From an uncultured Blautia sp. (GTDB taxonomy: Bacteria > Bacillota > Clostridia > Lachnospirales > Lachnospiraceae), in the NCBI GenBank assembly GCA_934409175.1, contig CAKRVX010000070.1, positions 1-10,819 on the forward strand: 10,819 bases of DNA, given 5' to 3'. A model generated the notes under the pieces. It was given only the letters and a program-made list of their open reading frames with translations. It was not told the origin of the DNA and made no database searches. Shown piece by piece: positions 1-10,641 of this stretch. The position numbers were made by a program, and so were the translations under genes. Every line of letters starts with the position of its first letter. Position 1 is the first letter of the stretch.

Positions 1-72
1 ATTTCTTTCAGAACGATACACTGGTTTTGTATCTTTCTCAAATTCATTTACATGTAATGTTTCCTCGCTCAT
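1..72 (-). CDS. Partial CDS, N-terminus of the gene after terL (probably portal protein)
   Basis: An ATG at 72 opens a frame that stays open to the window edge (24 codons, beginning [17 protein letters not shown]). The start overlaps the TGA of the terminase large subunit gene by four bases (ATGA), the usual sign of translational coupling, and a GAGAGG Shine-Dalgarno-like stretch lies about 8 bases upstream. The fragment is too short to recognise by sequence. The portal call rests only on gene order: in SPP1/PBSX-type late operons the portal gene follows terS-terL directly. The N-terminus is acidic and polar, which fits a portal but is not diagnostic. Confidence 0.6.
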   Translation of the reverse strand, partial: MSEETLHVNEFEKDTKPVYRSERN

Positions 73-1325
73 CGCAACATACCTCTCAATCTCTTTGCGT
101 TCTGTATCTGTTTTTGTGGAGTTTCTATCTCTCTTACTGTCATATCGGAGTAAATGCCGTATCGGATTGCGCAAAGAACATCGTCATTCTCTTTTAATGG
201 TTCTCCTGTGTTCTTTTTCCACACGTACTTATAAATCTCTTCCCGGAATCTCGGACATTCATCATAAACAATAAAGAATTTTTTTGTCGTCATAAGCGTT
301 GCGACCGCTTCAATTCCTGACAATACTCTGTTGTTTGCCAGATATGCGGATATTCCCGCTTTCTGAAAAGCTGAGATATGCTCCGTTCTGGCCGGGTCAC
401 AATAAAAAGGGATGTTACCATATCTTCTGATAACATCCTTTGCTCTCTTTATCCATTCGCCTATATATTTATGCTGTGCTGCATATTCTTCTATGATGTA
501 ATACTCATCACCTTTTACTCCGATTACAACAATTGCTCCATAATGCTCCCAGCCCCAGTCCACACCAGCAAAATACCGGTCAAATATTATCTTGTTTGCC
601 TGTTCTCTCGTGATTACATGGACATTTCTATCAAATTCCGGATAAACAACTCCTTCTCCCGATACCCATAATCCATTAATACCTCTATCATAAAACATCC
701 CTTTGGGGGTTGTTTCTTTGATCTGCTGCACATATCTTTCATCCAAGAACGTATTATCATCTAATCGGAAATGAAAGCTCATAATCCCAGCCGCTTCTGA
801 CTGGATGTAGTCTTTTAACAGCCAATGCTCTGGATGGTCCGGGTTAGTATCGGCAATGATTCTTGCTCCTGGACCGCTACATCTTGCTTTAATCTCGTCA
901 AAGACTTCCTGATTTGCAAGTGATGCCTCATTGATATAAGCTCCAAAAGCTGTCATGCCTCGAATTCTTCCCAGACCAGATATTGAACCATGCGAAGTCT
1001 GCACAACCCTTACACCAAATAATGTGAAATTATTGTATTTATCAAACTTAAATTCAAATCCATATTTATTAGATAGCTCTATGAGGATATTCTTCTGAAT
1101 ATTTGAAAAAGAATATCCTGCAAGAATGTATTGCGGAGTATCTATCCCAAGTTTATTTGCTATTCCCCGAACCCTCATGAGTTCCTGCAAGAATATATCA
1201 TTGTCTAGCTGTGTCTTACCGCTACGCTTCGCCCCATGATTGATCAGCATAAACCAATCTGTATTCTGGCAGGCTTTCAATATATCTATCTGCTTCTGCG
1301 TATAAATATTATTCAGATTCAGCAT
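69..1325 (-). CDS. terL: Terminase large subunit (PBSX/SPP1-type), DNA packaging ATPase-nuclease
   Basis: 418 aa, full length for the family. TerL is the motor of the packaging complex: it docks on the portal, hydrolyses ATP to pump DNA into the prohead and cuts the concatemer. The N-terminal ATPase shows a Walker A motif GAKRSGKT (31-38), a Walker B-like AYINEA (129-134, catalytic Glu133) and a DTNP coupling motif (159-162). The C-terminal RNase H-like nuclease starts with GVDWG (Asp256), followed by FYCDP (Asp310) and [10 protein letters not shown] (380-389). In the last motif the usual H-x-x-D-A-x-R-Y pattern reads D-x-x-C-A-I-R-Y, so the expected aspartate is Cys385. ATG start preceded by GGCGGTGA. 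It overlaps the end of terS by 17 bases and ends in an ATGA overlap with the next gene. Confidence 0.95.
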
Positions 1326-4119: not shown

Positions 4120-5289
4120 CTATTTTTCCATTTCCTCACTCAGCCAGTTTTCTACGTCTGTAATGCTGTTAAAGGTTAGATGGCGGCTCTTGTATCCCAA
4201 GTGCAGTAATTCGGCTACTTCTGGGATAGACAAATGTTTCATTTTATCCCAGCGGATGATTAACTTTTTATCCTCTTTCGAAACCGCTTCCTCACTCGGG
4301 ATTAATGCGGGTTTTGACGATTTTTGCGCCGGCGCAATTACTTCTTTTTCGATGTTTTCTTCTCTCTCTGGTTTCTCTGCATATCCCATATCTTTTTCTC
4401 TGGATTCTTCTGGGGTATTGTTATCGGTTTCATGTTCTGTTTCACTCTGTGTAGGCTCTGGTGCGTTTTCTTCCGGCTTTCTGATATCTCCTCTAGTTTC
4501 AGTATCATCTCTTCCACTTCCAACTTTGTCTTGTTTGTTGCCTTCGCTATTTTCCTTAAATTCATCTGTGTTTTCCTCCCCTGCGGCATCCTCTTCTGGC
4601 TCATACTTTTCTAGGATTTTAGCCGTTATTGCGGCAAATTCTTCCCAGGATATTTCTTTTGCTACCCCGGAGTATTTTTTGATATTTATCTTGCTTTCGT
4701 GGAACAGGATAAACCAGATACCCTTTCGAAAAGACCGGCTACCGCTTGGAGCGATTAACTCTCGTAAAGCTTTGGGGTCATCTTTTACCGTTACCGCTTT
4801 TCTTACAAGTTCTTGAGATATGTAGAAGTCTCTGATAAGCTGGCCTATGTCGTTTTCCGCTCCCTGTTCCGGATCCGACTTGTTAAAACGGTTTAATTCT
4901 CTAATGTCTTCCCTGCTCGTCTGCGGGGTGATCATGTTTAAGTCGGAATCAGGTAGGGCCAGCATAGCCGCAAGCTTACTTTGGCCGTACTCTAAAAATT
5001 CCGGCCGAAGTTCTTCAGAATTTCCATCTACGGAATATTTTTTGTTTATCTGAATGAATCTTGTTGTATCTGATGGAGATAAGCCACATTCTGCTTTCGC
5101 AAATTCTGCGATGCTCTTATAGCCATCCTGTCTATATAACTCGTTATCATCAATCTGGCGCAGGCGGTAGCCTATCTTCACGAAATCCTTCTTTAATCCG
5201 TTCAGTTTGTTCTTTGCAGAGGAAATATCCTCTTTTAATTTTTGCTTGATATCAATCCACTCTGTGAGTGTCATTTGTTTGTATTCCAT
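4120..5289 (-). CDS. Phage protein with DUF3102/ParB-like helical N-terminal domain and acidic disordered middle
   Basis: 389 aa, ATG start with AGGAGG five bases upstream. Residues about 15-130 form a helical domain (KDFVKIGYRLRQIDDNELYRQDGYKSIAEFAKAECGLSPSDTTRFIQIN...) that I recognise from Lachnospiraceae phages and conjugative elements. It resembles DUF3102/ParB-HTH-like domains: the LSPSDTTRFIQIN part looks like a DNA-binding helix-turn-helix. Residues about 229-325 are low-complexity, rich in Glu, Asp, Asn, Thr and Pro and surely disordered. A short C-terminal domain (IIRWDKMKHLSIPEVAELLHLGYKSRH...WLSEEMEK) follows. It directly follows PcfJ, whose stop overlaps its ribosome binding site. 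The layout, two folded ends joined by an acidic linker, fits a DNA-bound adaptor in replication or partition, but this is inference. Confidence 0.75.
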   Translation of the reverse strand: MEYKQMTLTEWIDIKQKLKEDISSAKNKLNGLKKDFVKIGYRLRQIDDNELYRQDGYKSIAEFAKAECGLSPSDTTRFIQINKKYSVDGNSEELRPEFLEYGQSKLAAMLALPDSDLNMITPQTSREDIRELNRFNKSDPEQGAENDIGQLIRDFYISQELVRKAVTVKDDPKALRELIAPSGSRSFRKGIWFILFHESKINIKKYSGVAKEISWEEFAAITAKILEKYEPEEDAAGEENTDEFKENSEGNKQDKVGSGRDDTETRGDIRKPEENAPEPTQSETEHETDNNTPEESREKDMGYAEKPEREENIEKEVIAPAQKSSKPALIPSEEAVSKEDKKLIIRWDKMKHLSIPEVAELLHLGYKSRHLTFNSITDVENWLSEEMEK

Positions 5290-5298
5290 ATCTGCCTC

Positions 5299-7347
5299 CT
5301 ATACTGCCGCTGCCAGTATCTGCTGATCTGTTCTTGTTTTAAGTTTCTTTGTATATTGCCTCAATAGTTCTGCGATAATTGTCGCATCTGGTTTCTTGTC
5401 GTATGCTCCGTACCACTGAACAACATGTTCGCCTTTAATCTCTATCGTGATATATGGTTCTTCTGGTTTCGTCCGTCTGCGAAGAAATAAGATATAGCTT
5501 ACCCCTCTATTGTGTTTGTCCAAATAGTTGTCACTGCCTACACAGTGGTGAAGGATGCGGCCTTCTCTCATAATCTCCACCGCGCTTCTGGCTGGTCTGA
5601 TAAGATAGTCTTCTGTCTGGCACGAATATCGATAACATAATTTTCTGTAGTTCTTTTCAATTTCTGGATATCTTAAAACAATTTCTGCTTTTCGTTTTTC
5701 AATCTTATCTTTATTGATTTCTTCTAGCAGTGCATCATGTGCTATATCTAAATTTCGCGGGAAAAGGTAAACCGAATTATGTAAATCGTATCCTTGCTCT
5801 TTGCGCATTTTTATGTAATCAATGTATTTTCTTGCAACTACTTCAAGATGTAATTCCTGTGTGGTACAATCACTTTCTACCGCTTTGCAACCGGCATAGC
5901 GTTCTATGTTGTTGATCAGGCGGTCAAGACCCGTATAGTTAAAAATGTCTGCATTTAAATATTGCTCTAACTGACAAACTTTAACCGCTTCCACCTGCCG
6001 TTCCGTAAATCTTTTATCAAGCCTCTTTTCTTTCTGATACACTTTTAGGTATTGTATGTCGCCTTCCTTCCCTTTCAGGCTTTTTACCCTCTCTGGATAA
6101 ATCCCAAAGAAATCCGCTGGCTTCTTTGCTGTTTTATCAGCAATTATTCCGCATTCTCCCAATACCATGTTTCTAACAATTTTATAAAGCCCCATTTTTA
6201 AGAGTACTTCCATTTGTGGATACTCTTTGTATCTTTCCATATATTGGAACAGATTAAATGAGCTGTACCTTTTTGAAAATTCTTTTGCTTCTGAATATTG
6301 TAGGATCGTGCCTTTTAGATTTTTATAACTTTCAGGGTGAATAGCACCGTCAAAAATTTCTATACCGTCATAACCCTGTAGATTACAATCAATCCATTTA
6401 TTTTTCCCTTCCCATCCATCGTATACATGAAAATCTCTTTGCGGCTTTTTGTCTTCTTCAAAAAATTCTCTTGAAATTTCTGTAATAGCTATCTCTTCTC
6501 TCGCTTCTTCGTATTGTTCATTCACAATCAAATTAAATCCCTTTTCAGCTAGATAATATCTTAATACCACTCCTGTTTTCTTATATTTCTGGGCTATAAA
6601 AAAATATTTCTTCAATCGTTCTGGAGTGCCTATACTGATCCTTCGTCCTTTTGCCCGGTATATTCCAACTGCATGACATAATTGGCAGGTTCCCTGTTTT
6701 CCCTCTTTCGGAGTAGGGATGACCGGTTCAAACTGTGCCTCAAAACCCTCTCCTGGCTGCGTTGCTCTTGTGTAGTCCTTTTTACAGGCAGTGCAGTACA
6801 CATCTGCATAGCGGCCATGACGTTTATAGTACAGACGGTGTGCGCGATAAAATAATCTGTCATCTGCCCATTCTTTTAAACTTACCGGTTCTTGCGGAAG
6901 ATTCGCAATCCGCTCATCCAGACGTTTCTGCCTTGTCTCTCTTTGCCGCTCTCTCCGTTCATTTTTTATTTTATGTATCAGATACCTTAAATCACTCGTC
7001 CATAAATTACCCCTTCTTTCGCCCTGACCTCTTTCTTTCGTAAAGTCCCATGTCTCGTCCATCGCTTTTTCTGATATATATACTTTCCTTTGCTCGATGT
7101 AAGTTTCTTCAATACCGCACGCTCTCCAATGATCATTCGGCGGAAAATAAAAACCCCAGTCATGCTTTGTGAAAACCATCCTGATATACGGTGCCGAAAG
7201 AGAGCCTTTTTTATTTTCGTATACCTCTACAAAAAGATGCGAAATCCCGCATATTTCCCGTGTAAATACCACTGCCACATGGGTATATTTTTTAGATGCT
7301 TTTTCCGCTGTCTGATAAGGGATTTTCTCGATTGCTTTCTTTTTCAT
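5299..7347 (-). CDS. pcfJ: PcfJ-like protein
   Basis: 682 aa. The C-terminal block EIMREGRILHHCVG (591-604), SYILFLRRR (617-625) and YITIEIKGEHVVQWYGAYDKKP (632-653) is the PcfJ signature, named from the conjugative plasmid pCF10 of Enterococcus and common in clostridial phages and mobile elements. A central zinc site is formed by C185-x2-C188 and C221-x2-C224. A basic Arg/Lys-rich helix (128-145) precedes it. The biochemical role of PcfJ is not established; pairing with PcfK next to replication genes suggests DNA processing. Start ATG 7347 overlaps the pcfK stop (ATGA), with GGGAGG upstream. Length is typical for phage-borne members. Confidence 0.88.
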   Translation of the reverse strand: MKKKAIEKIPYQTAEKASKKYTHVAVVFTREICGISHLFVEVYENKKGSLSAPYIRMVFTKHDWGFYFPPNDHWRACGIEETYIEQRKVYISEKAMDETWDFTKERGQGERRGNLWTSDLRYLIHKIKNERRERQRETRQKRLDERIANLPQEPVSLKEWADDRLFYRAHRLYYKRHGRYADVYCTACKKDYTRATQPGEGFEAQFEPVIPTPKEGKQGTCQLCHAVGIYRAKGRRISIGTPERLKKYFFIAQKYKKTGVVLRYYLAEKGFNLIVNEQYEEAREEIAITEISREFFEEDKKPQRDFHVYDGWEGKNKWIDCNLQGYDGIEIFDGAIHPESYKNLKGTILQYSEAKEFSKRYSSFNLFQYMERYKEYPQMEVLLKMGLYKIVRNMVLGECGIIADKTAKKPADFFGIYPERVKSLKGKEGDIQYLKVYQKEKRLDKRFTERQVEAVKVCQLEQYLNADIFNYTGLDRLINNIERYAGCKAVESDCTTQELHLEVVARKYIDYIKMRKEQGYDLHNSVYLFPRNLDIAHDALLEEINKDKIEKRKAEIVLRYPEIEKNYRKLCYRYSCQTEDYLIRPARSAVEIMREGRILHHCVGSDNYLDKHNRGVSYILFLRRRTKPEEPYITIEIKGEHVVQWYGAYDKKPDATIIAELLRQYTKKLKTRTDQQILAAAV

Positions 7348-7838
7348 CTCTTCCCGCCTCCCAAGTAGTAATTTCTGATGATTTCTTTCGCCTTACCCAT
7401 TGCAGGGATACCAAGTGTCACCCTTCCTGCTGTTACTCCTGCTGCTTTTAAGATTTCCTTATCTACCGGAACTTGATTTTTGAAAGACCATTTAAGTAAT
7501 GCAGCTATGCAGCCTTTTAAACTCTTATCTTTTTTTCTCACTTGGTGGGCAAGTAAATCATTGTCCGAGATCTGGACACGAAGATATTCCACCCAGTCTT
7601 CCATAATTCCTTTTAGCTTCAGTTCCTTCACTTCGACATCGATCTTTCCGTATGCTGCCGTTTCGGCATCGCACAGCTCCATGATGTCACCCGACAGATA
7701 GAGTTCTACAAAATCTTCCGGGATTCCGTTTTCTTTTGCCATCTCTTTCAAGTTTTTAAGGTCTCCCTCGTTAAACAAATTTTCTGCAAGGGTGTTGATC
7801 TCTTTGTAGCTGCTCATTTCCCCAAATTTATCAAACAT
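7344..7838 (-). CDS. pcfK: PcfK-like protein
   Basis: 164 aa, ATG start with AAAGGA about ten bases upstream. The pattern KEMAKENGIPEDFVELYLSGDIMELCD ... DWVEYLRVQISDN ... KSLKGCIAALLKWSFKNQ ... KEILKAAG is that of PcfK-like proteins, which are found next to PcfJ in plasmids, integrative elements and phages of Firmicutes. All-helical, no catalytic motif visible. The stop overlaps the pcfJ start by four bases, so the pair is coupled. The leader before this gene holds the DnaA-box cluster. Function in the family is not established. Confidence 0.85.
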   Translation of the reverse strand: MFDKFGEMSSYKEINTLAENLFNEGDLKNLKEMAKENGIPEDFVELYLSGDIMELCDAETAAYGKIDVEVKELKLKGIMEDWVEYLRVQISDNDLLAHQVRKKDKSLKGCIAALLKWSFKNQVPVDKEILKAAGVTAGRVTLGIPAMGKAKEIIRNYYLGGGKR

Positions 7839-7860
7839 CTTTCTTCATCCTTTCTATCAG

Positions 7861-7891
7861 TTGTCCACATTATCCACAATGCTGTGGATAA
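7861..7891. promoter_or_regulatory. Cluster of three DnaA boxes, candidate origin element
   Basis: TTGTCCACA (7861-7869, one mismatch) is directly followed by a perfect DnaA box TTATCCACA (7870-7878). After a 4-base spacer comes the perfect box in the opposite orientation (TGTGGATAA, 7883-7891). The last two form a 9-bp perfect inverted repeat. The cluster sits in the 107-base non-coding gap between the RNase H-like gene and pcfK, in a replication module, so an origin or a DnaA-controlled site is the natural reading. An operator for another regulator is the alternative. Confidence 0.6.
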
Positions 7892-7912
7892 CTTCTTTCT
7901 TGCCATTTTTCA

Positions 7913-7955
7913 AAATCGCTCCCCTATTTGGGATTTATGCGGTTTTTAGCGATTT
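7913..7955. repeat. Long-range inverted repeat beside the DnaA boxes
   Basis: AAATCGCT (7913-7920) and AGCGATTT (7948-7955) are 8-bp inverted arms around 27 bases that include a small TCCC/GGGA pair (7920-7923 and 7930-7933). The right arm covers the last codons of the RNase H-like gene. No T tract fits a terminator. It may be a cruciform or secondary structure belonging to the origin region. Confidence 0.35.
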
Positions 7956-8374
7956 ATAGTTGCTCTTTTTAGCTGTTCTTGTATCCACATACTGTATTCG
8001 TGTTTTCCCGGTTCTGACAAAAGCAGATGCTCCCTGGCTTTTTCTTTCAGTTGTTTCCACAAGTCTCCATTTGCCACTGGTTCTCCTTTTGTGGTTACAT
8101 ATCCATTTTGTTCCCATCTGTCTAAATTTTCTTCTAGCATCGTGAGAACAAAGGCGTTTTCAGTATGGATATGTATCTCACTTGGTTTTACTACCCTGCC
8201 TACTGCTTCCGTTATAGCTTCCAGGGTGGCTCTGTTATATGTTCCTTTTGTTTCTCTGAACTCTTGCTTTGTTTCTAGTTTCCCTTTTAGGATGCAGGCA
8301 AGCACATATCCGTACTTTCTTGTACATGACTTTGGGGCTTTACTGTCCGTCCCTATGTAGATATGTACTTCCAT
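7946..8374 (-). CDS. RNase H-like protein, divergent active site
   Basis: 142 aa, close to the size of RNase HI. It starts with a beta strand ending IYIGTDS (Asp10), then TYNRATLEAI (Glu52), then IHIHTENAF (Glu72), and carries the RNase HI-like KGEPVANGDLWKQL block (96-109) and a C-terminal helix. Compared with RNase HI (Asp10, Glu48, Asp70, Asp134), the third acid is Glu and no NExAD-type final aspartate is visible; the segment reads HEYSMWIQEQLKR. I recall this T-E-N/S form from clostridial phage relatives, so it is probably a family trait. It could remove RNA primers, or bind hybrids without cutting. ATG with GAGGAGG seven bases upstream; the start is two bases from a TGA overlap with rep. 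Confidence 0.78.
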   Translation of the reverse strand: MEVHIYIGTDSKAPKSCTRKYGYVLACILKGKLETKQEFRETKGTYNRATLEAITEAVGRVVKPSEIHIHTENAFVLTMLEENLDRWEQNGYVTTKGEPVANGDLWKQLKEKAREHLLLSEPGKHEYSMWIQEQLKRATINR

Positions 8375-8375
8375 C

Positions 8376-9101
8376 TCATTCCCTCCTCTTTATTTTCAAT
8401 AGTGTGTATTCCCGGTATGGGTAACCGGTAACTGGGTTATTTCCTTCGTGGACAGAATCCTTATCAATGTAATATCCTTTTGGGATACGGATTTTGTTCC
8501 ATGTTCTCCATCTGACATATGTTTTTTTCTTTGCTTCTGGAAGAGGGAGATTACGGGATGTGGAATAGCTTGTCTCTCTTAGGCGTTTATCCGTTTCCGG
8601 AGTTTTAGTGATGTATGCGGCCAGGTCTTTAAACTCACCTTTTTCGTACATTAGTTGGCAAATTACTTTTCCTTTCTTCCAAGCTTTTCTGAGAATCAAG
8701 TCTGTATCTGGTATTCTGTTTATTACCAGATGGACATGCCATCCGTTCTTAGTTCCTACCTCAATGTTGCGGATCCATTTCACTTTATATCCTGCTTTCC
8801 CGTATTCTCTCCGAATCACCTTCATTGCATCCGAAAAATCTCTCTTTGCTTCTGCCATATCAGACGGACGTTTTTCTTTTTCGTATGTAAGACATACAAA
8901 ATAATCGTTCTCTTCAAAGTGTTTTCTCAGCTTTCTTCTACAGGTCTTCTCTTTGTTCTTCTGATTGACTGCTTTCATCTGAGCAGGAGTGAGTTTCTTT
9001 TTCTTCTCCCTTTTCATTCCTGGAGAACGGTATCTGTAAGTGTGTCTTTCCTCAACCTCTATTGCATTATTAAATTCATATATATTTTTCGTATAACTCA
9101 T
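8376..9101 (-). CDS. rep: HUH-type replication initiator (Rep)
   Basis: 241 aa from ATG 9101, which has AGGA nine bases upstream; a TTG at 9134 has no ribosome binding site. The three HUH motifs are present in order: motif I FVCLTY (68-73), motif II WHVHLVIN with the metal-binding HVH (122-124), and motif III AAYITK with the nucleophile Tyr163 and Lys166 (YxxK). The N-terminus (EVEERHTYRYRSPGMKREKKKK) and basic region match rep genes of Lachnospiraceae mobile elements. HUH Reps nick one strand at the origin, stay bound to the 5' end and start rolling-circle replication. A single catalytic Tyr fits the plasmid/small-phage class. No helicase domain is fused. It heads the replication operon, preceded by a structured leader. 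Confidence 0.88.
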   Translation of the reverse strand: MSYTKNIYEFNNAIEVEERHTYRYRSPGMKREKKKKLTPAQMKAVNQKNKEKTCRRKLRKHFEENDYFVCLTYEKEKRPSDMAEAKRDFSDAMKVIRREYGKAGYKVKWIRNIEVGTKNGWHVHLVINRIPDTDLILRKAWKKGKVICQLMYEKGEFKDLAAYITKTPETDKRLRETSYSTSRNLPLPEAKKKTYVRWRTWNKIRIPKGYYIDKDSVHEGNNPVTGYPYREYTLLKIKRRE

Positions 9102-9137
9102 ATCTTCTGGTCCTATCTTTAATACGTTTATCAAGGT

Positions 9138-9161
9138 TAATACGGGACTTTCACCCGATTA
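9138..9161 (-). repeat. Bulged stem-loop upstream of rep
   Basis: On the minus strand TAATCGGG (9161-9154) pairs with CCCG + ATTA (9146-9143, 9141-9138), leaving one bulged T and a 7-base loop TGAAAGT. It lies 36 bases before the rep ATG. Position and shape would fit either a Rep nick site (double-strand origin) or a translational control hairpin; nothing in the sequence decides between them. Confidence 0.4.
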
Positions 9162-9166
9162 TCTTC

Positions 9167-9195
9167 TTGACATTTCAGATTACAGATAGTACACT
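9167..9195 (+). promoter_or_regulatory. Plus-strand promoter for the rep-leader antisense RNA
   Basis: TTGACA (9167-9172, perfect -35), 17 bases, then TACACT (9190-9195, 4 of 6 to TATAAT). The start would be near 9202. It points away from rep, on the strand opposite to all neighbouring genes. The -10 overlaps one arm of a GTACAC/GTGTAC inverted repeat (9189-9194, 9215-9220), which could be an operator. Confidence 0.6.
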
Positions 9196-9201
9196 TTAGA
9201 T

Positions 9202-9273
9202 ATCGTTATTTAGCGTGTACCATCTTTGGTATTTGCTACTAAGAGGAGTCAAATGTTTGACTCCTCTTTTTTT
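9202..9273 (+). ncRNA. Candidate antisense (countertranscript) RNA to the rep leader
   Basis: Bounded by the promoter at 9167-9195 and the intrinsic terminator at 9241-9273, giving a transcript of about 72 nt with no ORF of note. It would fold into a short hairpin TACCA-TCTT-TGGTA (9218-9231) and the terminator stem. Every base is complementary to the untranslated region upstream of rep if the minus-strand operon reads through from the small genes, for which no minus-strand terminator is visible. Plasmids of the pT181 and pIP501 type control rep by such RNAs; the same role here is inference. Confidence 0.5.
9241..9273 (+). terminator. Strong plus-strand intrinsic terminator
   Basis: A perfect 13-bp inverted repeat (AAGAGGAGTCAAA at 9241-9253, TTTGACTCCTCTT at 9256-9268) with TG between the arms, so the working loop is about four bases. 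The plus strand continues with a T run to 9273. On the minus strand the stem is followed by AGTAGC, so it is a poor terminator in that direction. Confidence 0.85.
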
Positions 9274-9425
9274 CATACAATCACATAATTCTGTTTAATC
9301 ACTTTACTTCTTTGCTCTGCATAACTTTCTGCTTCTGCCATCGTTCCACAGAAACACTCTAGTTGTCCGTTCTGCCAGCGAATTATTTTCGCCGGATTTT
9401 CTTTATTTTTCTTGGAATACTCCAT
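9273..9425 (-). CDS. Small hypothetical protein (50 aa)
   Basis: A 50-codon frame from ATG 9425 to TGA 9273: MEYSKKNKENPAKIIRWQNG, then LECFCGTMAEAESYAEQRS and KVIKQNYVIV. A basic N-terminus is followed by a beta-like IIRWQNGQLECFCGTMAEAESYAE pattern that I have seen in small phage proteins (strand, Cys-x-Cys, then an A/E-rich helix). Its start overlaps the end of the previous small gene by 23 bases; the upstream GAAGA is a weak ribosome binding site. It ends exactly at the T run of the plus-strand terminator. No function can be assigned. Confidence 0.55.
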   Translation of the reverse strand: MEYSKKNKENPAKIIRWQNGQLECFCGTMAEAESYAEQRSKVIKQNYVIV

Positions 9426-9640: not shown

Positions 9641-9684
9641 GCGGCATAATTTTTCCTTTCGTTTTTCTCCATTTTGGAGTATAC

Positions 9685-9690
9685 TATAAT
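9685..9690 (+). promoter_or_regulatory. Consensus plus-strand -10 box
   Basis: TATAAT at 9685-9690. The -35 region 16 to 18 bases upstream is only T-rich and poor. It lies just before a plus-strand hairpin and T run, so a short transcript starting near 9697 is possible. Because the region is AT-rich, a chance match cannot be excluded. Confidence 0.35.
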
Positions 9691-9696
9691 TGGTTT

Positions 9697-9750
9697 TATT
9701 GCTATGTGCCCATCGGGAGTTGCCGCTCCCCTAAGGGCACGTTTTTATTT
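9697..9750 (+). ncRNA. Candidate short structured plus-strand RNA ending in a terminator-like hairpin
   Basis: A two-part hairpin: outer stem GTGCCC/GGGCAC (9706-9711, 9735-9740), extended by A-T and a wobble pair; an internal loop ATC/CTAA; inner stem GGGAG/CTCCC (9715-9719, 9726-9730); loop TTGCCG. The plus strand then runs into GTTTTTATTT. The minus strand has no T tract after the stem. With the TATAAT box at 9685 this makes a roughly 50-nt RNA opposite the small-gene operon. It could be only a terminator for transcripts coming from the left on the plus strand. Confidence 0.4.
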
Positions 9751-10233: not shown

Positions 10234-10262
10234 TTGACATTTTTTTACATTTCCTCTATTAT
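10234..10262 (+). promoter_or_regulatory. Near-consensus promoter of the lone plus-strand gene
   Basis: TTGACA (10234-10239), exactly 17 bases, TATTAT (10257-10262, 5 of 6). Start near 10269, leader about 45 bases, then AAAGGAG eight bases before the ATG at 10314. It is the best sigma-A-type promoter in the window and needs no activator by its sequence. A TATAAT on the minus strand (10263-10258) overlaps its -10 but has no -35. Confidence 0.8.
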
Positions 10263-10313
10263 ATTATCACGGGATACTTACATACCCGAATACATAAGAA
10301 AGGAGATGCAACT

Positions 10314-10526
10314 ATGAAATCATTTGAGGAATTTTGGACTTCTCTTACCGAAGAGGATTTTGCTAATTTTGCTGACATTGCTAATGAAAGAGCTAATTCC
10401 GTTGAAACTGAGAATATGATTCCTAATACCATTCTCGGAACTAAAATCAGTATCCAAAACACCATGATGACAATGCAGATTCTTAAGCGTTATCATGAAT
10501 GGATTTCTGAACAGCTTGATAAATAG
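10314..10526 (+). CDS. Small helical hypothetical protein on the plus strand (70 aa)
   Basis: The only convincing plus-strand gene here. ATG 10314 with AAAGGAG eight bases upstream. The product (MKSFEEFWTSLTEEDFANFA, then DIANERANSVETEN, IQNTMMTMQILKRYHEWISEQ) is acidic at the N-terminus and helical throughout. I recall similar small proteins (F-E-E-F ... T-x-E-D-F-A ... LLxxYHxWL) from Lachnospiraceae phages without known function. It has its own strong promoter and an intrinsic terminator, so it is a separate unit, likely expressed in the lysogen or very early. A role like a repressor is not supported, since no helix-turn-helix is visible. Its 3' end overlaps the opposing gene by 44 bases. 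Confidence 0.8.
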   Translation: MKSFEEFWTSLTEEDFANFADIANERANSVETENMIPNTILGTKISIQNTMMTMQILKRYHEWISEQLDK

Positions 10527-10641
10527 CTTTCCCATCAATTTTAGAATCTGGCTTCAAATTATCTTCGATGATTTGAAGCTTTTCTCTTATCTCCTTAAGT
10601 TCCTCATGTATACCAATAAGTTGTGATAATATCTTTCCCAA
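10483..10641 (-). CDS. Small coiled-coil hypothetical protein (52 aa)
   Basis: From TTG 10641, six bases after AGGAGG. The start is supported by the duplicated 23-base block, which in its other copy is followed by an ATG at almost the same distance. An ATG at 10695 or 10668 is in frame but lies inside the preceding gene. The product reads MGKILSQLIGIHEELKEIRE, then KLQIIEDNLKPDSKIDGKAI and YQAVQKSIHDNA, with heptad-like Leu/Ile spacing in the first 30 residues. The last codons are antisense to the end of the plus-strand gene, and its coiled-coil codons form the plus-strand terminator. Confidence 0.6.
   Translation of the reverse strand: MGKILSQLIGIHEELKEIREKLQIIEDNLKPDSKIDGKAIYQAVQKSIHDNA
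10551..10588 (+). terminator. Intrinsic terminator of the plus-strand gene
   Basis: GCTTCAAAT (10551-10559) pairs with ATTTGAAGC (10571-10579). Inside, T-ATC pairs with GAT-G through one wobble, leaving a TTC loop, so about 13 pairs in all. TTTTCTCTT follows. It lies 25 bases past the plus-strand stop, inside the opposing coiled-coil gene. Confidence 0.8.

What the first reader, a model, noticed from the sequence alone, without database searches (positions are those of the whole stretch)
9167..9273. A plus-strand RNA opposite the rep leader: plasmid-like antisense copy control in a phage genome
A perfect TTGACA at 17 bases from TACACT, followed about 45 bases later by a 13-bp stem and T run, defines a short plus-strand transcription unit with no gene. 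It lies directly upstream of an HUH rep gene read from the other strand. No minus-strand terminator separates rep from the small genes upstream, so the rep mRNA would carry the full complement. Antisense RNAs that block rep translation or elongation are known in pT181 and pIP501 plasmids; finding the layout next to terminase genes suggests a phage-plasmid lifestyle with copy control.
Basis: partly seen in the sequence, partly recalled or inferred. Interest (0 to 1): 0.7.

Follow-up and report, generated by a model that had tools for sequence, protein, structure and literature searches.

The report
Antisense switch on phage replication gene
A short RNA made from the strand opposite the leader of a phage replication gene appears to flip that leader between an open and a closed shape, as some plasmids do to limit their copy number, and the same layout recurs in many related bacterial phages and prophages.

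Summary
A plus-strand promoter (TTGACA-17-TACACT, 9167-9195) and a 12-bp hairpin with a T run (9241-9275) are there; 0 of 400 shuffles of the window gave such a unit. The layout is conserved opposite HUH rep genes. Of 91 rep loci, 73 have an opposite-strand promoter scoring at least 10, against 3 of 91 for the rep strand over a slightly shorter span. Of those 73, 56 have a terminator, against 2 of 73 on the other strand.

Three leader segments suggest the mechanism. The leader copy of the promoter spacer (arm1') pairs either with arm2', which the antisense RNA would cover, or with the rep Shine-Dalgarno/start region. Both pairings are locus-specific against permuted partners (z 21.6 and 13.5, n 58; arm2' with the start region z -0.3). 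Antisense RNA would take arm2', freeing arm1' to shut rep: the published ON/OFF logic of pSK41/pSA564 plasmids (PMC8129170), here on an unrelated HUH Rep with a phiX174-like nick motif inside the OFF stem. My paper searches listed no report of it.

Expression and regulation are untested, and folding support in the window is weak. A phage-plasmid lifestyle is not shown. 18 of 91 loci fall below the promoter score.

The parts
9167..9172 (+). -35 box TTGACA of the antisense promoter; its minus-strand copy (TGTCAAG) also pairs with CTTGA of the nick-like motif in the predicted OFF stem
   Evidence: TTGAC kept in most of the 59 strict promoters listed
9190..9195 (+). -10 box TACACT, 17 nt from the -35
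9202..9275 (+). predicted antisense RNA, about 72-75 nt: short 5' tail, one internal stem-loop, terminator stem-loop (5' end inferred as about 7 nt after the -10)
   Evidence: fold; length; no expression data
9241..9275 (+). intrinsic terminator: 12-bp stem, 4-nt loop, T run
9179..9194 (+). arm1: promoter spacer plus five bases of the -10; in the rep leader (minus strand) this is the switching segment arm1' (MID)
9215..9230 (+). arm2: lies in the antisense RNA; its minus-strand copy arm2' (UP) pairs with arm1' to form ON hairpin B
   Evidence: score 23; 1 of 72 swapped partners as good
9110..9126 (-). rep translation-initiation segment (DW) that pairs with arm1' in the OFF form; includes SD-like AGGA 9111-9114
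   Evidence: 5 of 72 swapped partners as good
9143..9157 (-). hairpin D (CGGG-TGAAAGT-CCCG) between the promoter and rep; terminator-like in a number of relatives, without a U run here
9120..9135 (-). conserved motif E, CTTGATAAACGTATTA, candidate nick site of the rolling-circle origin (resembles phiX174 ACTTG/ATATTAA)
   Evidence: 73 of 91 loci match the relatives' consensus at >=11/16 (mono shuffles 48 of 455); nicking not tested
8376..9101 (-). rep, HUH replication initiator (PF23343 REP_ORF2-G2P; phrog_3584)
   Evidence: H122, H124 and Y163 kept in 87, 88 and 88 of 88 aligned relatives
9273..9425 (-). small ORF just upstream of rep; its stop codon abuts the terminator's T run, so a read-through mRNA would carry the full complement of the antisense RNA
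   Evidence: no minus-strand terminator-like site between 9135 and 10819
9683..9712 (-). weak candidate promoter (TGGGCA-18-TATAGT) for the small-gene/rep operon
   Evidence: 9 of 12 matches, not above chance alone

Best explanation
The plus-strand unit makes a constitutive antisense RNA of about 55-75 nt that senses gene dosage and represses the phage's HUH initiator Rep. In the rep mRNA leader, arm2' and arm1' pair as they emerge (hairpin B, ON) and leave the rep ribosome site free. When antisense RNA is abundant it pairs with the terminator region and arm2' of the nascent leader. arm1' is then free to pair with the rep Shine-Dalgarno/start region (OFF), closing a long stem that encloses hairpin D and the nick-like motif; rep translation stops. 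In some relatives arm1' can instead pair with the loop and 3' arm of D, which is followed by Ts, and may end transcription. Shown by sequence: the promoter, the terminator, both locus-specific pairings and their conservation. Inferred: that the RNA is made, that it acts by this switch, and that it limits phage copy number or holds rep silent in the prophage.
For: Opposite-strand promoter score >=10 in 73 of 91 rep loci (rep strand over a slightly shorter span: 3 of 91; shuffles 25 of 455), and >=11 in 63 of 91 (0 of 91; 3 of 455). Terminator in 56 of 73, against 2 of 73 on the rep strand and 13 of 365 shuffles; median 3' end 65 nt after the -10. Hairpin B: own score >=20 in 54 of 73, against 380 of 5256 swapped pairs. 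Own-versus-permuted tests: B z 21.6, arm1' with start region z 13.5, arm1' with D z 5.3, arm2' with start region z -0.3, arm1' with far upstream DNA z 0.6 (n 58); after thinning to 49, z 20.7, 11.6 and 4.1 for the first three. The best start-region pairing is in the top 10% of swaps in 28 of 58 loci and covers the SD-like core in 15 of those 28 (4 of the other 30). Blocking the antisense site in the fold lowers start-region accessibility more than in arm-shuffled controls (n 56, Wilcoxon p 6e-5). Hold-out: promoter >=10 in 9 of 12 and terminator in 8 of 12 further genome loci.
Against: No RNA data. The fold test is weak in size: mean drop 0.045 against -0.015, drop above 0.1 in 14 of 56 and rise above 0.1 in 2 of 56; in the window accessibility rises from 0.32 to 0.39 (control rises more), and the free leader's minimum-energy fold is already OFF, so ON must be kinetic. 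The window's own arm1'-SD match is only moderately special (5 of 72 swaps as good). arm1' also shows an own-partner excess with early rep codons (z 5.1; 3.5 thinned). 18 of 91 loci lack a promoter at score 10, among them L233 and L234 (55-56% identical Reps) and Butyrivibrio phage Arawn (L113). Of the 12 hold-out loci, hairpin B is clear (at most 2 of 73 swaps as good) in 3, and the start/D-region match is within the best 6 of 73 swaps in 4. Loci are related, so counts are not independent.
Confidence: 0.65

Rival explanations
1. pT181/pIP501-type attenuation is the main mechanism: antisense binding lets a terminator (hairpin D, or arm1' with the 3' arm of D) form ahead of rep, so transcription stops.
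For: D scores >=20 in 24 of 58 loci, against 5 of 580 mononucleotide shuffles, in a number of rows with A/T-run arms ending in TTTT. arm1' with D shows an own-partner excess (z 5.3; 4.1 thinned); L132, L140, L131 and L148 have long arm1'-D matches.
Against: In the window D has no U run (CCCGTATTAACC). The arm1'-start-region signal is much stronger than arm1'-D. D may be kept as part of the replication origin.
Confidence: 0.15
2. The antisense unit acts without the switch: duplex formation, RNase III cleavage or transcription collision lowers rep mRNA.
For: Any antisense RNA of this kind would form a duplex with a read-through rep mRNA; promoter and terminator are conserved.
Against: Does not explain why the promoter spacer is complementary to both arm2 and the rep start region in a locus-specific way.
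Confidence: 0.1
3. The plus-strand promoter is a lagging-strand (single-strand) origin where RNA polymerase primes synthesis on the displaced rep strand.
For: If E is the nick site, the displaced strand is the rep strand, which is the template of this promoter; M13 and plasmid ssoA use RNA polymerase this way (recalled). In the window's predicted single-strand fold the -35 is mostly paired (0.82), and stem B covers five bases of the -10. TAGCGT, recalled as the ssoA CS-6 motif, occurs in the window RNA.
Against: A conserved terminator about 65 nt on is not needed for priming. In DNA folds of the rep strand both boxes are >=0.7 paired in only 8 of 73 loci, and the window's -10 is 0.41; of 54 strong B stems 13 cover >=4 nt of the -10 and 16 touch the -35. 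Pairing with the SD has no role in an sso. TAGCGT was not seen in L125 read by eye.
Confidence: 0.07
4. Chance: a promoter match and a hairpin that happen to lie together.
For: Promoter-like sites alone are no more frequent than in shuffles.
Against: 0 of 400 shuffles give the unit; conserved in most relatives.
Confidence: 0.02

Closest known systems
RepA_N plasmid control, pSK1/pSK41 RNAI and pSA564 RNA1 (PMC8129170: abstract and passages seen; PMC5703833: passages seen)
   Same: A small antisense RNA (about 83 nt in pSK41, <100 nt in pSA564) with two stem-loops covers an upstream leader segment; a middle segment pairs either upstream (ON) or with the ribosome site (OFF); the RNA follows copy number.
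   Different: Rep here is an HUH nuclease of phages (PF23343), not RepA_N; the switching segment is the spacer of the antisense promoter (not compared with pSK41 here); a nick-like motif and hairpin sit inside the OFF stem; rep seems to be read from an upstream operon.
pT181 RNAI attenuation (PMC5703833: passages seen)
   Same: Rolling-circle replicon; antisense RNA against the leader; pre-emptor versus inhibitory hairpin just before the start codon.
   Different: Rep_trans initiator with the dso inside rep; main effect is transcription termination. In the window the candidate hairpin lacks a U run.
pMV158 RNAII (PMC5703833: passages seen)
   Same: Rolling-circle replicon, HUH initiator (family recalled), 48-nt antisense RNA proposed to hinder ribosome binding.
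   Different: RNAII pairs just upstream of the ribosome site and works with CopG; no leader switch described in the passages seen.
phiX174 gene A origin; pC194-type origins (recalled)
   Same: Motif CTTG-AT...ATTAA at the annotated or likely nick site; HUH initiator (recalled for phiX174).
   Different: The candidate origin here sits in the rep leader of tailed phages; nicking unproven.

Membership tests
RepA_N antisense replication control (pSK41/pSA564) | RepA_N initiator gene downstream | tested here: not met
   Rep hits PF23343 REP_ORF2-G2P and phrog_3584
RepA_N antisense replication control (pSK41/pSA564) | Antisense promoter and terminator opposite the rep leader | tested here: met
   (sequence only; RNA not shown)
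RepA_N antisense replication control (pSK41/pSA564) | Mutually exclusive UP:MID and MID:RBS pairings with only UP covered by the RNA | tested here: met
   permutation tests; positions. In the window itself MID:RBS is moderate and equilibrium folding does not show the shift
RepA_N antisense replication control (pSK41/pSA564) | RNA represses rep in trans | not testable with these tools
   needs bench work
pT181 family | Rep_trans initiator, dso within rep | tested here: not met
   HUH-type family; candidate nick motif upstream of rep
pT181-type attenuation | Terminator with U run before the rep start, formed when antisense binds | tested here: inconclusive
   terminator-like D in part of the relatives, no U run in the window
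HUH rolling-circle initiator and origin | HxH and catalytic Tyr in Rep | tested here: met
   H122 87/88, H124 88/88, Y163 88/88 (88 of 92 loci translated; which Tyr is catalytic is inferred)
HUH rolling-circle initiator and origin | Nick site cut by this Rep | not testable with these tools
   resemblance to the phiX174 annotated origin only
Phage-plasmid | Plasmid partition or no integration | tested here: inconclusive
   ParA-type in 3 of 13 related records, Tyr integrase in 6 of 13; integrase genes near rep in four of five genomes fetched; window is a 10.8-kb piece without a held genome
RNA-polymerase-primed single-strand origin | Both promoter boxes duplexed in the folded single strand | tested here: not met
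   both boxes >=0.7 paired in 8 of 73 loci; window -35 0.82, -10 0.41 (predicted folds only)
Any Rfam family | Covariance-model match at gathering score | tested here: not met
   window at E<=5: the only match here is P31 (RF01676) on the minus strand, 9243-9311, 24.0 bits against a gathering score of 40, E 0.62; 14 relatives at gathering: one tRNA in L009 and nothing else

The most novel reading that the evidence does not exclude
A widespread, undescribed class of phage regulatory RNA: in prophages of Lachnospiraceae and related Clostridia (and perhaps lactobacillus phages) the rolling-circle origin, the antisense promoter and the rep ribosome switch are one interlocked element. The promoter spacer serves as switch arm, the -35 complement and the nick site pair in the same stem, and antisense dosage counts phage genomes, so each nicking or transcription event at the origin feeds back on rep. 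It would set the choice between quiet carriage and rolling-circle burst.
Probability: 0.33. Interest if true: 0.78.

Novelty: new variant of a known kind. Interest (0 to 1): 0.64.

Why it matters
Antisense copy-number switches are textbook plasmid biology; here the same three-segment logic appears on an unrelated phage initiator and recurs across many prophages of gut Clostridia. It makes testable whether integrated temperate phages count their own genome copies by RNA, and gives a sequence signature (promoter, B arms, D, nick-like motif) with which origins of these phages can be found and annotated.

Tried and rejected
DNA-level relatives of the window in the phage collection: none. Rep in the plasmid collection: none at E<=1e-5. 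Relatives by the 389-aa ORF in viral contigs: none confirmed. Terminase relatives are close (up to 84%), but none of those 80 partial loci showed rep, so they were not used for the leader. Rfam: nothing at gathering score at this place; one sub-threshold overlap, P31, on the minus strand, and nothing but a tRNA in 14 relatives. Genus-level searches around the closest genomes added no new locus, and a second family draw largely repeated the first. Rep against solved structures by sequence: two matches at E 0.45 and 0.7, taken as noise. NCBIfam: none for the four window proteins scanned.

Rejected or put low: an sso reading (both boxes paired in 8 of 73 predicted single-strand folds; the window's -35 is paired, its -10 only partly); the ssoA CS-6-like TAGCGT in the window, not seen in L125 by eye (not counted over all loci); hairpin B as a protein operator, because arm sequences differ between loci while pairing is kept. 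Equilibrium folding alone does not show the switch in the window. An ungapped pairing score can miss bulged B stems (L244, by eye).

Rows dropped: 13 of 105 rep loci (8 duplicates, 5 with short upstream DNA); one with a run of N; 18 of 91 with promoter score <10 before the pairing tests; 15 of 73 without motif E between -35 and start; 17 of 73 without a terminator. At the laxer score of 9, one search gives 82 of 91 against 15 of 91 and 105 of 455. The rep-strand control had to fit both boxes inside the 125-nt interval, the opposite strand only its -35, so it had somewhat fewer positions; the shuffles did not have this handicap.

Full report
What is there. The window is a piece of a phage or prophage: terminase large and small subunits, a sigma-like regulator, an RNase H, a PcfJ-domain protein and a 241-aa initiator on the minus strand. 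No genome is held for it. The initiator (8376-9101) matches Pfam REP_ORF2-G2P and PHROG 3584, replication initiation protein. Its HxH (H122, H124) and Tyr163 are kept in 87, 88 and 88 of 88 aligned relatives (88 of 92 loci translated), so I take it as an HUH-type rolling-circle initiator. The promoter match alone is not unusual, but the promoter-plus-terminator unit appears in 0 of 400 shuffles.

Relatives. Rep relatives came from viral contigs, GTDB contigs, phage records and whole genomes (family of G001: 43 of 397 genomes at E<=1e-20, order of G252: 25 of 392, family of G252: 33 of 368 at E<=1e-30, largely the same genomes). Of 105 loci with a rep hit, 92 were kept after removing 8 duplicates and 5 with too little upstream DNA. 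Rep identities to the window run from 63% (L176) down to 26% (L115).

Conserved antisense unit. On the strand opposite rep, with the -35 at -165 to -40 from the start codon, 73 of 91 loci score at least 10 for a promoter (TTGAC, 17 nt, mostly extended TGnTATAMT). The rep strand over a slightly shorter span gives 3 of 91 and dinucleotide shuffles 25 of 455. At a score of 11 the figures are 63 of 91, 0 of 91 and 3 of 455; at 9 they are 82 of 91, 15 of 91 and 105 of 455 (one locus with N left out). Among the 73, 56 have an intrinsic terminator within 130 nt, against 2 of 73 on the other strand of the same DNA and 13 of 365 shuffles; its 3' end has a median of 65 nt after the -10, with the middle 80% at 55-70. 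So the predicted RNAs are short and fairly uniform; the window's terminator ends at 73 nt, slightly above that range.

Leader structure. Between promoter and rep lie two further elements. Hairpin D scores >=20 in 24 of 58 loci, against 5 of 580 mononucleotide shuffles; the window's own D scores 12. Motif E, CTTGATAAAGATATTA and variants, matches at >=11 of 16 in 73 of 91 loci, against 48 of 455 mononucleotide shuffles. E resembles the phiX174 origin, whose annotated origin base 4306 falls after CAACTTG in CAACTTGATATTAATAAC. I take E as the likely nick site; this is resemblance, not a test.

Two competing pairings. The promoter spacer (arm1) pairs with nucleotides about 10-30 of the antisense RNA (arm2): own score >=20 in 54 of 73 loci, against 380 of 5256 swapped pairs. 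Since arm1 lies in the promoter and not in the RNA, this hairpin (B) exists only in the rep mRNA, or in single-stranded DNA. The rep-mRNA copy of arm1 (arm1') is also complementary to the rep start region. In permutation tests over 58 loci with E in place: B z 21.6, arm1' with the start region z 13.5, arm1' with D z 5.3, and arm1' with early rep codons z 5.1, each with 0 of 20000 permutations reaching the observed mean. The other controls are flat: arm2' with the start region z -0.3, arm2' with D z 0.9, arm1' with DNA far upstream z 0.6. After thinning similar leaders to 49 the values are B 20.7, start region 11.6, D 4.1, early codons 3.5, and -0.2, 0.9 and 0.4 for the flat controls. In 28 of 58 loci the own start-region match is in the best 10% of swaps; in 15 of these it covers the SD-like core, against 4 of the other 30, and in several more it covers the start codon. 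In the window, GTACTATCTGTAATCTG pairs with CGTATTAAAGATAGGAC, which contains the AGGA nine nucleotides before ATG.

How it likely works. The antisense RNA covers the terminator region and arm2' but not arm1'. Without it, arm2' and arm1' pair as they leave the polymerase and the start region stays open. With it, arm1' is released and closes the start region in a stem that also contains D and the nick motif (fold). This is the upstream/middle/downstream logic published for pSA564 and pSK41, where the OFF form also acts as a putative terminator (PMC8129170, abstract and passages; PMC5703833, passages). Some relatives could use D as a terminator; the window's D has no U run.

What speaks against it. 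There are no expression data. The constrained fold supports the switch only modestly: over 56 loci with a terminator the mean loss of start-region accessibility is 0.045, against -0.015 with arm1' shuffled (Wilcoxon p 6e-5); the loss exceeds the control by more than 0.1 in 16 loci and falls short by that much in 1. The window itself does not show a loss (0.32 free, 0.39 bound; shuffled control rises more), and its free minimum-energy fold is already the OFF form, so the ON form would have to be kinetic. The window's start-region match is equalled by 5 of 72 swaps, its B arms by 1 of 72. 18 of 91 loci have no promoter at score 10, including L233 and L234 (55-56% Rep identity) and Butyrivibrio phage Arawn, L113; Arawn has been observed only in lytic growth, though the authors find signs of temperance (PMC7372960, abstract and passages). 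Of 12 further genome loci, all those listed that had not been fetched, 9 score >=10 and 8 have a terminator; hairpin B is clear (at most 2 of 73 swaps as good) in 3, and the start/D-region match is within the best 6 of 73 in 4; L276 and L278 share the same promoter. Of four distant phages two score >=10 and one has a scanned terminator. The promoter regions of L259 and L260 fit the layout by eye although the terminator scan missed them.

Single-strand origin. Because the displaced strand would be this promoter's template, I tested whether the folded rep strand could form a duplex promoter. Both boxes are at least 0.7 paired in 8 of 73 loci; in the window the -35 is 0.82 and the -10 0.41 paired. 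Together with the conserved terminator and the SD complementarity this puts the reading low, not out.

Lifestyle. Of five genomes whose rep regions were fetched, four have an integrase gene on the same contig: phrog_95 type in L265 and L266, tyrosine type in L267 and L269, on contigs of 445 kb, 3.08 Mb, 617 kb and 31 kb; in the fifth, L268, only a terminase and a portal ORF were scanned. Among 13 related viral records 6 have a tyrosine integrase and 3 a ParA-type ATPase; serine integrases were not searched. So the unit is kept in integrated prophages and may also occur in phage-plasmids; the window cannot be placed.

Novelty. I ran eight searches of the open paper library and saw listings only: 20 of 32, 16 of 16, 20 of 22, 2 of 2, 10 of 128, 2 of 2, 0 and 1 of 1 papers. 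None of the listed titles or abstract starts reports antisense control of an HUH rep in tailed phages; subscription papers and preprints are largely missing. No Rfam family reaches its gathering score here. I rate it a new variant of a known kind: the plasmid ON/OFF antisense switch on a different initiator, in phages, merged with a probable replication origin.

Noticed in passing
window 9680-9750 (+): A second plus-strand hairpin, GTGCCC-ATC-GGGAG-TTGCCG-CTCCC-CTAA-GGGCAC (9706-9740), followed by GTTTTTATTT, just after TATACTATAAT, with no gene noticed; it lies opposite the weak candidate promoter of the small-gene/rep operon.
   Followed up: no
window 10234-10580 (+): A divergent plus-strand gene (70 aa, phrog_7728) with a near-consensus promoter TTGACA-17-TATTAT and a terminator-like hairpin behind it.
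   Followed up: no
window 4120-8374 (-): rep is followed by RNase H, a 164-aa ORF with no family hit, a PcfJ-domain protein and a 389-aa ORF; the same order recurs behind rep in L105, L267 and L268 and partly in others, a conserved replication-side module.
   Followed up: partly
window 69-1325 versus 8376-9101: Mosaic: terminase relatives reach 84% identity while rep relatives reach only about 63%, and none of 80 terminase loci fetched showed rep.
   Followed up: partly
L233, L234: Two fairly close Reps (55-56%) keep hairpin D and motif E but lack the antisense promoter region.
   Followed up: partly
L113, L247, L262 (Arawn type): Origin-like D and E are kept without a recognisable antisense unit.
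   Followed up: partly
L247: The rep-like frame in this genome holds one in-frame TAA.
   Followed up: no
L001, L177, L195: Viral records with a ParA-type ATPase (phage-plasmid candidates); the record of L001 also has a tyrosine integrase.
   Followed up: no
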